Part shown: positions 10,472 to 20,628 of the stretch, piece by piece
Layout of the letters: each line of letters begins with the position of its first letter
Numbering within the stretch: position 1 is the stretch's first letter
Assembly (NCBI GenBank): GCA_902780785.1
Contig: CACZGS010000004.1
Coordinates: forward strand, 62,001-126,000
From: Oscillospiraceae bacterium
GTDB taxonomy: Bacteria > Bacillota > Clostridia > Saccharofermentanales > Saccharofermentanaceae
Direction: 5' to 3'
Length of the DNA stretch: 64,000 nt
Program-made: the position numbers and the translations under genes
The notes under the pieces: model-generated
What the model saw: the letters and a program-made list of their open reading frames with translations, nothing else
Databases searched by the model: none
What the model was told of the DNA's origin: nothing

Positions 10472-11536
10472 TCAGATGCCGGGATAATAGAGATCCGGCT
10501 TCATAAGATCGGGGATCTTCTTAAGATAAAGTCTTCCGGATAACGCAAAATGAGGGAGCTCGATGAAGTCAGCATTTGCGGGTGATATCAGCCTTACCAT
10601 TGGATCGGCAATGATATTTTCCGCATCCTTAAGCGCTTCTTCGAGCTCCTCTTCACCGTGACACTTCCTGTCACAGTCAAGAAGGAGTCCGTCTGTTATT
10701 TCAGTTGTGGCAATCACGTTGTAATCAATGCTGGTCTTTGTCTTGATATATGCGGCAACAGAACCCGATATTACGGGTTCGCCCACAATATAGTTTTTGG
10801 TTTTTTCTCTTACGGTTTCAGTATAGTCACAGGGTCTGCCGTCCCACGGAAGTCCTTTTACATACGGTATGCCGTATTCCTCCTGCATATACTTGCATGC
10901 AGCAATGCCGGAAGATGATACGGCAATATTTAATTCTGCTTCAGTCGCCCTGACAGCATTCTCATATGAAGTGTTAAGGCCCCAGTTTGAGACAAGCTCA
11001 TATCCGCCTGATAAGTGTATCTCCGTTGACGTGAGATCAAGAGGTGTCATGCCAATGATATTCACGCCGTTCTTTACCTTCCGTTCAGGATCGCGCAGCA
11101 TCTTTTTTGCAAAGCTCAGGAATGCTTCTGACTGGCCTTTTGAATAGTCATGCATTGCATTAGTGTTGATGTAAAAGCACGGCAAGCCTGTCTTTTCCTC
11201 CAGGACCCTGCAAATGCCCTTAAAGTCAGTGCCGTTAAGATAAGGGAGCGGCGAATTTGCCAGAGCGATAAACCGCGGCCGCATGATTTCAGCTGCTGCG
11301 CAGATATCATTTATGAACTTGTTATCATTACCGGTGATGGCATCGATATCATTAAGCCCTGAAATGTAGATAAGGCTCTCCTTATCAAACCATCTGGTCT
11401 CATCATGGGTATTGTATGTGGAATTGCATCCTGAAGGATCATGGATAACGGTCATGCCGCCGAACTCGTAAAGGGCGCTCGCAGCTCCCGATACATCGCC
11501 TGTATAGACCGGTAAGATCCTGTAAGTCTTCCTCAT
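10472..11536 (-). CDS. Nitrogenase-like component 1, K-type subunit of pair 2 (K2)
   Basis: A 354-residue protein of the nitrogenase component 1 superfamily (NifD/K/E/N, BchN/B, CfbD). DPSGC places Cys37 where the first P-cluster-type Cys of the K side lies. The usual third cysteine position, before the GTD turn in ANSPLPYLNGTDF, has no Cys. It is paralogous to K1: both share GC at 36-37, a following DExRW, SGLxDxDAI, MTPL, SSSGIxAC and a final F-A-x-SGR block. The start overlaps D2 by 4 nt (ATGA). It is the last gene of the ten-gene operon and ends exactly against thiC. By analogy with NifN it could be half of an assembly scaffold, or part of a second enzyme; the sequence does not decide. 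Confidence 0.85.
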   Translation of the reverse strand: MRKTYRILPVYTGDVSGAASALYEFGGMTVIHDPSGCNSTYNTHDETRWFDKESLIYISGLNDIDAITGNDNKFINDICAAAEIMRPRFIALANSPLPYLNGTDFKGICRVLEEKTGLPCFYINTNAMHDYSKGQSEAFLSFAKKMLRDPERKVKNGVNIIGMTPLDLTSTEIHLSGGYELVSNWGLNTSYENAVRATEAELNIAVSSSGIAACKYMQEEYGIPYVKGLPWDGRPCDYTETVREKTKNYIVGEPVISGSVAAYIKTKTSIDYNVIATTEITDGLLLDCDRKCHGEEELEEALKDAENIIADPMVRLISPANADFIELPHFALSGRLYLKKIPDLMKPDLYYPGI

Positions 11537-12831
11537 ATGCAGCTCCTGCAGCCAAGGCCCTTGCGCGGAACGATATCACGCATGTCCTTGCTGTTATTAA
11601 ATGCATCTTCCATGAGCCTTATAAACTCACATATTCCGCTGAAGCCGTAAAGGCCCCCGCCTTCTATTATGTTTACAAAATTCCCTGTGCCTTCGAACCA
11701 GGCAGCCTTCTGGCCTATTGCCAGAACTTTCTCTTTGCTTCTTACAGGTCTTCTGTCGCTTACATGCATAGTCGAGTGAAGGATAAGATCAGGAAAGTTA
11801 TTCTGCAGATATTCAAAATCCGCCTTTTCGTTTCCGTCAACAGCATCAAGATAGACCGTCTTAACATTTATCCCGTTATCCGCTAAAAACCTTGCAAGTG
11901 ACAAAGGCTTCGGTACAGCGGTGTAATCGACCGCGACAGGCATATCTCCGATAAGATCTTTAAGCTTTTTCAATTCCGCCATACAGGCATCTTTCCCGTC
12001 TTCGAAAAATCTGTCAGGAACAGATAATCCTGACTGCCTTATCTCTTCTTCAACGGTGTCAAAATCAAAGCTTAAGGGGCAGTAGATGTACTTGCGGTCC
12101 AGCCTCTGTGTTATGGCTTTTGCGGCCATTAGGCCTGCCGGATACTGACAGATGAATAATGAGGATTCCCCAACCGAGAGATACTCTTCAAGTGTCCTGC
12201 AGTCAGCGGTATCTTTTACAGTCTTGGCGTTAAACTCCAGTATCTTTTTGAAGTCGTTCTCGGATGCCGGCATATCGCTTCCCGCAAACGCCACAGTATC
12301 TTCCTTTGCAGGAAGCTTAGGAATGATGTCCGACATAGCTTTTCGGAGTCTCTGGTCAGGAGTCGTGCCGCGCTTCTGCATTACCGGATCCATGAATCCT
12401 CTTATGAAAATAACGTCAGGAAAACGCTTTTCGAGCTCCTTGTAGATATAGCCGATATCGCATCCCATAAATCGATGGACACACACCGGGAAAACGATCA
12501 CCACCGAAGGGATCTTGGGGAGCTTTCTAAGGCAGTCGGTAACACCTTCTATGGTGGTTTCCTCTATCCTTCCCGAATGCGTCATGTCATCTTCTTCAAG
12601 TACTACTGACGAGAACCTGCCGAGCTCACCCATCTCTGCGGCTGTCATGACAACTCCGCGCAGACAGTTGTCGGCGCAGATGTATATCTGATGAGCCTCA
12701 GGGATCCTGAACCCGATATGCACGATATTCCATGTGCCGTGTACTGGCGCGTTGAACTCAAGCCCGTTTACAAACGGCTTTGGAAATTCGGCATCGCCGA
12801 TCCTCACCCTTTCATCACTTGACGTTGGCAT
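11533..12831 (-). CDS. Nitrogenase-like component 1, D-type subunit of pair 2 (D2)
   Basis: A 432-residue nitrogenase component 1-type protein. Candidate metal ligands are Cys52 and Cys56 (ICADNCLRG) and Cys117 and Cys124 (FPVCVHRFMGCD); the latter block aligns with the CxxxLxGDD region of NifD that holds a P-cluster cysteine. The chain ends in GLGCRSCI, so Cys428 and Cys431 form a CxxC at the extreme C-terminus, which D1 lacks. ATG at 12831 overlaps the upstream small gene by 17 nt. With K2 it forms a second D/K pair beside D1/K1, as NifEN stands beside NifDK. Function unknown; a scaffold or a distinct reductase are the main options. Confidence 0.85.
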   Translation of the reverse strand: MPTSSDERVRIGDAEFPKPFVNGLEFNAPVHGTWNIVHIGFRIPEAHQIYICADNCLRGVVMTAAEMGELGRFSSVVLEEDDMTHSGRIEETTIEGVTDCLRKLPKIPSVVIVFPVCVHRFMGCDIGYIYKELEKRFPDVIFIRGFMDPVMQKRGTTPDQRLRKAMSDIIPKLPAKEDTVAFAGSDMPASENDFKKILEFNAKTVKDTADCRTLEEYLSVGESSLFICQYPAGLMAAKAITQRLDRKYIYCPLSFDFDTVEEEIRQSGLSVPDRFFEDGKDACMAELKKLKDLIGDMPVAVDYTAVPKPLSLARFLADNGINVKTVYLDAVDGNEKADFEYLQNNFPDLILHSTMHVSDRRPVRSKEKVLAIGQKAAWFEGTGNFVNIIEGGGLYGFSGICEFIRLMEDAFNNSKDMRDIVPRKGLGCRSCI

Positions 12832-13063
12832 AGGAAGTTTTTACGTTAACTCCGTCAAGACGTCCGATCTTTCCTGTTATCTCGCTGATGTAATCCTGGG
12901 GCGCGTTAATGGCGATCATGATGATGCTGATGTTCTTCTCGCGGTAGGGCACGCCCATTCTCCCGATGATGTATTTTCCGGCCTCGTGAAGAAGGGCATT
13001 AAGCTTCTCAACTGATTCAGGATTCTCTACGATTATCGAGATTGCAGCTACTCTTGTTTCCAT
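12815..13063 (-). CDS. TM1266-family small protein (hydrogenase-system putative regulator)
   Basis: An 82-residue protein with an ACT/NikR-C-terminus-like ferredoxin fold. It matches the TM1266 family by the pattern VEKLNALLHEAGKYIIGRMG, VPYREKNISIIMIAINAP and GKIGRLDGVNVKTSY. That family is normally found beside [FeFe]-hydrogenase maturation genes (HydE/F/G) and is named a putative regulator there; its true role is not known to me. Here it sits inside the nitrogenase-like/Hyp operon, 9 nt after hypE and overlapping D2. ATG at 13063 follows AAGGAGCG. It has no DNA-binding helix, so it may sense a metal or small ligand or act as an assembly factor. Confidence 0.85.
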   Translation of the reverse strand: METRVAAISIIVENPESVEKLNALLHEAGKYIIGRMGVPYREKNISIIMIAINAPQDYISEITGKIGRLDGVNVKTSYANVK

Positions 13064-19877: not shown

Positions 19878-19881
19878 AGGT

Positions 19882-20628
19882 TCACCCTTCCAAAAGCAGT
19901 TTTGCCAGACCGGTGAACTTTTGGGCAGCATCAGAATCCGCTGCACCTTCAACGACTGTCATTCCCTTATCCTCACAGAGTGTGATGTCATCACTTCTGG
20001 GAATTACTGCAACGATATCCACATTATGGTCTTTTGCAAATTCAGCGACCTTCTCATCTTCACCCGGAACATTACGCTTGTTCAGGATCAGCCCTCTGAC
20101 ATTTGCGTATCCTCTGTCCTCGAAATTTCTTACCGCCTGGCAGATGTTGTTTGCCGCATAAAGAGCCATCTTCTCACCTGACGTAACGATCAGTACCTGC
20201 TCGGCATAACCTTCCCTGATCGGAGCTGCAAAACCTCCGCAGACAACGTCACCAAGAACGTCGTACAGAACAACGTCCGGCTTGTATTCTTCAAATAATC
20301 CGAGTTCATCCAAGAGATTGAAGGTTGCAATGATACCTCTTCCGGCACAGCCAAGACCGGGTGTAGGACCGCCCGTCTCGATGCAGAGCACTCCGCCGAA
20401 GCCTTCCTGCGAGATCTCCTTTGCTGATGCGGGATCAACGCCGTCTTTAAGGATCTCGATGACAGGCTTAAGCGGTTTGCCGCCTAAAAGATTGATAGTG
20501 GAATCGGCTTTGGGATCACATCCTATCTGGATTACGCGCTTCCCCATACTTGCAAAGGCAGCAGACAGATTAGATGTGACCGTCGACTTACCTATACCGC
20601 CTTTACCGTAGATTGCGATCTTAAGCAT
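19882..20628 (-). CDS. NifH-like ATP-dependent reductase (nitrogenase-like Fe protein)
   Basis: A 248-residue homodimeric-type Fe protein that should hydrolyse MgATP and pass electrons from a bridging 4Fe-4S cluster to component 1 proteins. The P-loop GKGGIGKST is at 8-16. Cluster ligands are Cys94 (GLGCAGRG) and Cys130 (DVVCGGFAAPIR), the positions of NifH Cys97 and Cys132. Arg97 matches the Arg modified by DraT in some NifH. It is shorter than true NifH (about 275-290), like reductases of non-nitrogen-fixing systems. ATG at 20628 follows AGGAG. It is the first gene of the operon and the only reductase for two D/K pairs. Confidence 0.95.
   Translation of the reverse strand: MLKIAIYGKGGIGKSTVTSNLSAAFASMGKRVIQIGCDPKADSTINLLGGKPLKPVIEILKDGVDPASAKEISQEGFGGVLCIETGGPTPGLGCAGRGIIATFNLLDELGLFEEYKPDVVLYDVLGDVVCGGFAAPIREGYAEQVLIVTSGEKMALYAANNICQAVRNFEDRGYANVRGLILNKRNVPGEDEKVAEFAKDHNVDIVAVIPRSDDITLCEDKGMTVVEGAADSDAAQKFTGLAKLLLEG

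What the first reader, a model, noticed from the sequence alone, without database searches (positions are those of the whole stretch)
10472..20628. Ten-gene operon joining a nitrogenase-like H-D-K-D-K set to HypCDEF
Seen: one NifH-like gene, two D/K-type pairs, hypF-hypC-hypD-hypE and a TM1266-family gene lie on one strand. Junctions are 4-nt overlaps (D1/K1, hypC/hypD, hypD/hypE, D2/K2), a 17-nt overlap (TM1266/D2), or gaps of 0-9 nt. Known: HypC-F build Fe(CN)2CO for [NiFe]-hydrogenase; nitrogenase-like proteins reduce strong bonds or rings (BchLNB, CfbCD, Mar). Inferred: an unknown reductase whose metal centre uses Hyp-made Fe-CN/CO, or whose product feeds that pathway. I recall no described system with this gene set.
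Basis: partly seen in the sequence, partly recalled or inferred. Interest (0 to 1): 0.93.

Follow-up and report, generated by a model that had tools for sequence, protein, structure and literature searches.

The report
HydG-free route to hydrogenase's iron centre
A ten-gene bacterial cluster joins the Hyp enzymes, known for making iron bound to cyanide and carbon monoxide, to two nitrogenase-like enzymes; in the genomes sampled it occurs only where HydG, the usual ligand-making enzyme of [FeFe]-hydrogenase, is missing, so it likely builds that hydrogenase's metal centre by a different route.

Summary
The operon is real and as described: nflH-nflB-nflC-hypF-hypC-hypD-hypE-TM1266-nflD-nflE (10472-20628, minus strand; nfl names are mine). 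The host genome has no [NiFe]-hydrogenase hit but has two [FeFe]-hydrogenases, HydE and HydF, and no HydG. Among 391 sampled genomes of its class, all 11 with the Hyp-linked operon lack HydG; three species of the same genus without the operon have HydG. In relatives the operon runs on into hydF or hydF-hydE, and in two loci it follows an [FeFe]-hydrogenase gene. Five further HydG-less genomes carry only the nflH-D-E half, beside an iron-complex importer instead of Hyp, with hydE and/or hydF adjoining in three. None of 233 genomes with HydF and HydG carries an nflD orthologue. Best explanation: a HydG-independent pathway for the H-cluster, in which Hyp proteins supply cyanide and an Fe-CN/CO unit and ATP-driven nitrogenase-like reductases likely supply or rearrange CO ligands before HydE and HydF. 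The set also occurs in Clostridium ljungdahlii, whose missing hydG was reported as unexplained in 2022, and in gut Blautia, Roseburia and Coprococcus. Replacement of HydG is strongly supported by genomics, with a few exceptions; the chemistry is inferred.

The parts
19882..20628 (-). nflH: NifH/BchL-type ATP-dependent Fe protein (248 aa), first gene
   Evidence: PF00142 298.9 bits; C94 and C130, the likely [4Fe-4S] ligands, in 68 of 68 aligned sequences
18552..19877 (-). nflB: nitrogenase component-1-type subunit (441 aa; open frame reaches back to 19952)
17620..18555 (-). nflC: short component-1-type partner of nflB (311 aa)
   Evidence: PF00148 53.8 bits; C37, C42 in 63 of 63; fused to nflB in 12 of 80 named loci
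15339..17618 (-). hypF: carbamoyltransferase, first step of cyanide ligand synthesis
   Evidence: TIGR00143 742.9 bits, cut-off 466.1
15126..15338 (-). hypC: Fe(CN)2CO scaffold/chaperone
   Evidence: TIGR00074 60.3 bits, cut-off 48; C2 and H45 in 60 of 60
14074..15129 (-). hypD: [4Fe-4S] scaffold for Fe(CN)2CO
   Evidence: TIGR00075 363.1 bits, cut-off 192.8; C28, C56, C59 in 65 of 65; the only HypD hit of the genome
13073..14077 (-). hypE: carbamoyl dehydratase making the thiocyanate; ends in PRIC (open frame reaches back to 14110)
   Evidence: TIGR02124 413.1 bits, cut-off 251.6; C-terminal C345 in 50 of 50
12815..13063 (-). TM1266-family protein, a family named after iron-only ([FeFe]) hydrogenase systems
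   Evidence: TIGR03959 110.7 bits, cut-off 60.8
11533..12831 (-). nflD: second component-1-type subunit (432 aa)
10472..11536 (-). nflE: short partner of nflD (354 aa); in six relatives followed directly by hydF
   Evidence: PF00148 86.4 bits; C37 and H32 in 52 of 52; hydF next in G058, G135, G158, G200, G293, G311

Best explanation
[quoted passage not shown] Shown: the gene set, its order, and its alternation with HydG among sampled genomes that hold HydF. Inferred from established Hyp biochemistry: HypF and HypE turn carbamoyl phosphate into the cyanide ligand and HypC-HypD hold the iron as an Fe(CN)2CO-type unit, in place of the tyrosine cleavage done by HydG. Inferred, untested: the two ATP-driven nitrogenase-like reductases, nflH-nflBC and nflH-nflDE, supply low-potential electrons, nflHBC acting with HypCD (likely to form or bind CO) and nflHDE converting the unit to the Fe(CO)2CN-like form that HydE accepts; HydE, HydF and the apo-hydrogenase then act as usual. 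TM1266 likely regulates or carries an intermediate.
For: (1) Alternation with HydG. In the same 391 genomes of the class, nflB orthologues occur in 11 and nflD orthologues in 16; none of these 16 has HydG over its cut-off, also when searched down to E 1e-5. Among 261 genomes with HydF: nflD+ HydG- 16, nflD- HydG- 12, nflD+ HydG+ 0, nflD- HydG+ 233 (Fisher p 2e-18, not corrected for kinship). (2) Swaps between close relatives: in the window's genus 7 genomes have the operon and no HydG, 3 have HydG and no operon, 1 has neither; genera g143 (G210, G318 against G336) and g199 (G378 against G324) also show both states; six families hold both kinds with no overlap. (3) All 16 keep HydE, HydF and [FeFe]-hydrogenase over cut-off and none has a [NiFe] large-subunit hit. 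(4) Hyp co-varies: 11 of 11 Hyp-linked genomes have one HypD, the three HydG+ species of the genus none. (5) Linkage in 7 of the 11: nflE is followed by hydF in G058, G135, G200, G293 and by hydF-hydE in G158 and G311; hydE-hydF abut the set in G210. An [FeFe]-hydrogenase gene lies just upstream of nflH in G158 (group A6 model over cut-off) and, by BLAST, in L109. hydE or hydF lies within the held flank in 31 of 80 named loci. (6) Hyp active-site cysteines are kept. (7) Clostridium ljungdahlii carries the set (L168); PMC9431212 reports hydE and hydF but no hydG there and gives no straightforward explanation.
Against: All evidence is genomic; no experiment. Three near-complete genomes (G160, G283, G334) have HydE and HydF but neither HydG nor an nfl hit, and G280 and G368 have HydF without over-cut-off HydE or HydG, so absence of HydG does not always bring the operon. 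Five HydG-less genomes have nflHDE but no HypD, so Hyp is not needed wherever nflHDE stands in for HydG. Distantly related nfl sets occur in genomes that do have HydG (G072, G148, G179, G269). Hyp makes Fe(CN)2CO whereas each H-cluster iron has one CN, so a rearrangement must be assumed. C. ljungdahlii is reported to have a [NiFe] group 1a hydrogenase (PMC9431212), so there Hyp might serve both. PMC9431212 also proposes an atypical radical-SAM protein as a divergent HydG. Several absences rest on draft or metagenome assemblies.
Confidence: 0.85

Rival explanations
1. The nitrogenase-like proteins are themselves reductases of an unknown substrate whose active-site metal carries Hyp-made Fe-CN/CO.
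For: Tight operon with all four ligand-making Hyp genes and no [NiFe]-hydrogenase hit.
Against: Does not explain the alternation with HydG, the run into hydF or hydF-hydE, or HypD-less genomes with nflHDE beside hydE and/or hydF.
Confidence: 0.06
2. The Hyp proteins mature a [NiFe]-hydrogenase and the nif-like genes are passengers.
For: HypCDEF are textbook [NiFe] maturases; C. ljungdahlii has a reported [NiFe] enzyme (PMC9431212, passages).
Against: No [NiFe] large-subunit hit in any of the 16 nfl genomes; nflHBC with hypF, hypC and hypD in every named locus long enough to tell.
Confidence: 0.02
3. The set feeds H-cluster assembly, but the nitrogenase-like enzymes only supply reduced iron or iron freed from an imported chelate, and CO and CN come from Hyp alone or from free CO.
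For: nflHDE relatives sit beside FecBCD-type iron-complex importers; free CO or CN is reported to raise activation by HydF made with HydE (PMC9431212, section 17).
Against: Two separate reductase pairs look excessive for iron supply; no FecB or FecC match in the 80 named Hyp-linked loci or in the Hyp-linked loci L038-L047.
Confidence: 0.2
4. HydG loss is coincidental or filled by a divergent radical-SAM enzyme, and the operon has an unrelated role.
For: Proteins of 373-421 aa, probably ThiH-like (label not tested), score 172 to 222 bits against the HydG model in five of the 16 nfl genomes; PMC9431212 suggests an atypical HydG.
Against: In the seven operon genomes of the window's genus the only residual HydG-profile hits are HydE itself; alternation recurs in several families.
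Confidence: 0.06

Closest known systems
Canonical HydE-HydF-HydG maturation of [FeFe]-hydrogenase
   Same: Same predicted product; HydE, HydF and [FeFe]-hydrogenase retained; TM1266 often present
   Different: HydG (tyrosine to CO and CN) absent; HypCDEF and two nitrogenase-like reductases present instead
HypCDEF pathway of [NiFe]-hydrogenase
   Same: HypF, HypE, HypC, HypD with catalytic cysteines kept; predicted Fe-CN/CO product
   Different: No [NiFe]-hydrogenase large-subunit hit in the genome; genes sit inside a nitrogenase-like operon
Nitrogenase-like reductases BchLNB (DPOR), CfbCD, methylthio-alkane reductase
   Same: Fe protein plus component-1 pair, same fold, ATP-driven electron delivery expected
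   Different: Below the curated BchL, BchN, BchB and CfbC/CfbD cut-offs; two pairs; one short subunit per pair; linked to hydrogenase maturation
NifEN / NifDK nitrogenase
   Same: Component-1 fold; best sequence matches include NifE; two component-1 pairs recall NifDK plus NifEN
   Different: Far below nifD/nifE cut-offs; NifD cofactor cysteine not conserved in nflB; a separate nif-like locus with a NifB-like protein exists elsewhere in the genome
ATP-driven MCR activation complex (PMC12176620, abstract seen)
   Same: Nitrogenase-related clusters used to reduce another enzyme's metal cofactor
   Different: Acts on nickel F430 in methanogens; different proteins

Membership tests
HydEFG maturation system | HydE and HydF present with [FeFe]-hydrogenase | tested here: met
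   16 of 16 nflD genomes
HydEFG maturation system | HydG present | tested here: not met
   0 of 16 over cut-off
[NiFe]-hydrogenase Hyp maturation | HypC, HypD, HypE, HypF with catalytic cysteines | tested here: met
   All above cut-offs; cysteines kept
[NiFe]-hydrogenase Hyp maturation | [NiFe] large subunit as client | tested here: not met
   0 in the window's genome, 0 of 16 nfl genomes
[NiFe]-hydrogenase Hyp maturation | HypA and HypB for nickel | not tested
   Not searched genome-wide; absent from the operon. PMC9431212 reports none found in C. ljungdahlii
Nitrogenase (NifHDK/NifEN) | Fe protein with conserved cysteines and component-1 fold | tested here: met
Nitrogenase (NifHDK/NifEN) | Equivalog cut-offs for nifH, nifD, nifE | tested here: not met
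   nflH 308 of 394 for nifH; best nifE score 61 of 505 (nflB); best nifD score 23.3 of 654 (nflE)
Nitrogenase (NifHDK/NifEN) | Cofactor-binding Cys of NifD (recalled as Cys275) | tested here: not met
   nflB: in the alignment to a NifD-type alpha chain the Cys column falls on a non-Cys position, no conserved Cys there. nflC, nflD, nflE were judged only by lack of a conserved Cys in mid-protein
DPOR (BchLNB) / CfbCD | Equivalog cut-offs | tested here: not met
   BchL 206.8 of 345.2, CfbC 308.2 of 402, TIGR01279 BchN 26.5 of 420, CfbD (methan_mark_13) 26.5 of 268
Methylthio-alkane reductase | Cofactor content and C-S cleaving activity | not testable with these tools
   Only fold-level and weak sequence similarity

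The most novel reading that the evidence does not exclude
[quoted passage not shown] and, because the Hyp plus nflHBC module is swapped for an iron-complex importer in other HydG-less bacteria, some species may take up a ready-made Fe-CN/CO complex from their neighbours.
Probability: 0.3. Interest if true: 0.98.

Novelty: categorically new. Interest (0 to 1): 0.95.

Why it matters
In the described route to the H-cluster all CO and cyanide ligands come from tyrosine (PMC3105041, abstract), through HydG. [quoted passage not shown] This operon offers a testable answer to the first and a candidate for the second, gives a role to a large set of unassigned nitrogenase-like genes, and reaches common gut and rumen genera. 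It would also be a new parts list for making [FeFe]-hydrogenases.

Tried and rejected
Nitrogen fixation or FeMo-cofactor synthesis: rejected (cut-offs far off; the genome has a separate nif-like locus with a NifB-like protein). A [NiFe]-hydrogenase client: rejected. Tetrapyrrole reduction: not supported by cut-offs, and the fold cannot tell (rows whose Z differ by less than 1 are ties). The thiC neighbour as a functional link: among the neighbourhoods read it was seen only in the window, G058 and G200.

Rows left out of the orthologue counts: the 10 of 21 genomes with only distant nflB matches (25-32% identity; five of them are the nflHDE genomes) and the 4 of 20 with distant nflD matches (26-28%: G072, G141, G148, G179). 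Three of those four have HydG, so the alternation holds only for the closer family. The cut between E 2e-78 and 3.5e-50 was set after seeing the list.

In the contingency I counted G074, G133, G210, G318 and G319 as HydG-less to match the tool's tally of 240 over cut-off; G302 (E 5.6e-78) was kept as HydG+. Which five fall below was my guess from E-values; only G210 and G318 were checked directly. Moving G074 changes 12 and 233 to 11 and 234. The within-family product printed leaves out HydG-less genomes without nfl and is not used as evidence.

A transposon paper on C. autoethanogenum (PMC9004356; passages) has no 'nitrogenase', 'HypD' or 'maturation' in its main text; its tables were not read. 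PMC11736057: one passage seen.

Literature searches listed no paper that from title, abstract or the passages seen joins nitrogenase-like genes or HypCDEF to [FeFe]-hydrogenase maturation; the library holds only open-licence PMC papers, so one may exist elsewhere.
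Full report
What is there. The window carries, on the minus strand, ten head-to-tail genes from 20628 to 10472. Family scans identify an NifH-type Fe protein (here nflH), two pairs of component-1-type proteins (nflB-nflC and nflD-nflE; names are mine), HypF, HypC, HypD, HypE and a TM1266-family protein. The operon ends against convergent thiC. Homologue names and the named contigs place the genome near Saccharofermentans, mostly known from rumen and gut samples.

The genome around it. 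The assembly (2.84 Mb, 97% complete) has no [NiFe]-hydrogenase large-subunit hit, two [FeFe]-hydrogenases, HydE and HydF as a neighbouring pair on another contig and no HydG: its only HydG-profile hit is HydE itself. HypD occurs once, in the operon.

Distribution. I searched the same 391 genomes of the class for nflB, HydG, HydF and nflD. nflB gave 21 genomes; 11 are orthologues by score (E at most 6.3e-132, 46% identity or more), 10 have only distant matches. nflD gave 20; 16 are orthologues (E at most 2.4e-78, 35% or more) and 4 are distant (E 3.5e-50 or weaker). The 11 nflB genomes are all among the 16. None of the 16 has HydG over its cut-off; all 16 have HydF, HydE and [FeFe]-hydrogenase; none has a [NiFe] large-subunit hit. 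Among 261 HydF-bearing genomes the counts are nflD+ HydG- 16, nflD- HydG- 12, nflD+ HydG+ 0, nflD- HydG+ 233 (five weak HydG hits were counted as absent, see Tried and rejected). Kinship makes the p-value too small, but the pattern repeats: in the window's own genus seven species have the operon without HydG and three have HydG without the operon or any HypD; a further one, G260, has hydrogenase genes but no HydE, HydF or HydG hit; genera g143 and g199 also hold both states; six families contain both kinds without overlap.

Exceptions. Twelve HydF-bearing genomes lack both HydG and nflD. Seven are incomplete (G057, G074, G099, G183, G258, G309, G363; 65 to 86% complete). Of the five fairly complete ones, G160, G283 and G334 have HydE over cut-off, G280 and G368 do not; G283 also has a [NiFe] large subunit and HypD. 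They may have lost HydG to assembly gaps or use a third route; no nfl gene was seen in the printed HydF neighbourhoods of G160, G280, G283 and G334 (that of G368 was cut off in the printout).

Two arrangements. Hyp-linked type (11 genomes): nflH-B-C-hypF-C-D-E, then TM1266-nflD-E in the window's genus (in G311 split over two contigs, nflHBC-hypF on one, hypDE-TM1266-nflDE-hydF-hydE on the other) or a second nflH with nflD-E (G121, G318); in G210 hydE, hydF and TM1266 lie just upstream of nflH2D-E-nflH-B-C-hypFCDE; in G355 nflHDE sits on another contig. In G058, G135, G200 and G293 nflE is followed by hydF, in G158 and G311 by hydF-hydE. In G158 an [FeFe]-hydrogenase gene matching the NADH-dependent group A6 model over its cut-off lies about 0.3 kb upstream of nflH; L109 shows the same by BLAST (0.6 kb). 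Importer type (G228, G069, G370, G378, G142; no HypD): nflH-D-E with FecB, FecC and FecE genes in 5 of 5. hydE and hydF adjoin in G228 and G378, hydE in G069; in G370 and G142 only TM1266 genes are near, HydE and HydF lying on other contigs. G228 reads hydE-nflH-D-E-fecB-fecC-fecE-hydF-TM1266. In G370 the FecE ATPase is fused to a TM1266 domain (Pfam); BLAST shows TM1266 matches at the end of the FecE genes of G378 and G142 too. So Hyp plus nflHBC and the importer look like interchangeable modules upstream of a shared nflHDE-HydE-HydF core; this is inference from presence and absence. What the importer carries is unknown.

Named carriers. One scan of the species-genome collection with the nflB alignment found 509 related stretches, of which the best 80 were kept: among them Blautia luti, B. 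massiliensis, B. schinkii, Roseburia faecis, Coprococcus comes, Eubacterium ramulus, Faecalicatena contorta, Clostridium ljungdahlii, many rumen genomes, and metagenome bins labelled Coriobacteriaceae, Atopobiaceae and Olsenella. HydG was not searched in these named genomes. Order is conserved in all loci long enough to tell for nflH, nflC, hypF, hypC and hypD (76 of 76, 73 of 73, 66 of 66, 60 of 60), and nflD-E follow hypE in 46 of 49. nflB and nflC are fused in 12 of 80, which supports a BC heterodimer. hydE or hydF lies in the held flank in 31 of 80, a lower bound since flanks end near nflE. No FecB or FecC match was found in these loci.

How it likely works. Shown here: gene content, order, and alternation with HydG. 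From published biochemistry: all five CO and CN ligands of the H-cluster derive from tyrosine in the HydEFG system (PMC3105041, abstract); HypE and HypF make cyanide from carbamoyl phosphate (PMC12130793, search listing) and HypCD build Fe(CN)2CO (PMC12134894, abstract). Inference: in these bacteria Hyp takes over cyanide supply and iron scaffolding, and the nitrogenase-like enzymes, which deliver low-potential electrons with ATP, form CO ligands and convert the Fe(CN)2CO-type unit to one with one CN per iron for HydE and HydF. CO from CO2 is one option; the same review says added CO2 was ruled out as direct CO source in R. eutropha and names formyl groups and formate as other options (section 13 read). 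A related use of nitrogenase-type clusters to reduce another enzyme's cofactor is the MCR activation complex (PMC12176620, abstract).

Prior knowledge. Di Leonardo and colleagues (PMC9431212; abstract, passages and section 17 read) found hydE and hydF but no standard hydG in five of eight acetogens including C. ljungdahlii, HypCDEF without HypAB in five, and offered hypotheses (an atypical HydG, or unknown ligand-incorporation mechanisms) but no firm explanation. The consecutive locus tags they list for hypF, hypC, hypD and hypE of C. ljungdahlii agree with the order in locus L168 of that species, where the four genes lie between nflHBC and nflH2-D-E. Ten literature searches (Tried and rejected) listed no description of this link.

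Verdict. A HydG-independent H-cluster pathway is the best explanation (0.85); the division of labour among the two reductases is open.

Noticed in passing
L035:7773-12756 (window genome, contig C6): A second nif-like locus: two component-1 subunits well over the Pfam cut-off, an NifH and a NifB/NifX-like protein, near ABC-transporter and sulfur-amino-acid-like genes (read by eye); it may be a methylthio-alkane-reductase-type cluster, not tested.
   Followed up: partly
L054:11725-12783; by BLAST also L055:2187-3296 and L056:13265-14320: FecE-type importer ATPase with a C-terminal TM1266 domain, tying an iron-complex importer to a family named after [FeFe]-hydrogenase systems.
   Followed up: partly
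L130, L131, L132, L149, L151, L154, L155, L157, L160, L162, L171, L174: nflB and nflC fused into one reading frame of 795-996 aa.
   Followed up: yes
L048-L051 (G072, G141, G179, G148): Distant nflH-D-E sets (26-28% to nflD), FecBCD importer genes seen in three of the four loci; three of the four genomes have HydG. A broader family of importer-linked nitrogenase-like reductases of unknown substrate.
   Followed up: partly
G160, G283, G334 (L078, L080, L081): Genomes with HydE and HydF but neither HydG nor nfl hits; perhaps assembly gaps or a third route.
   Followed up: partly
G260: Species of the window's genus with two [FeFe]-hydrogenase genes but no HydE, HydF or HydG hit.
   Followed up: no
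window 6348-10471: Genes that look like thiamine biosynthesis (thiM, thiE, thiD, thiC; named by eye) converge on the operon; ThiC is recalled to release CO as a by-product, but the adjacency was seen only in the window, G058 and G200.
   Followed up: partly
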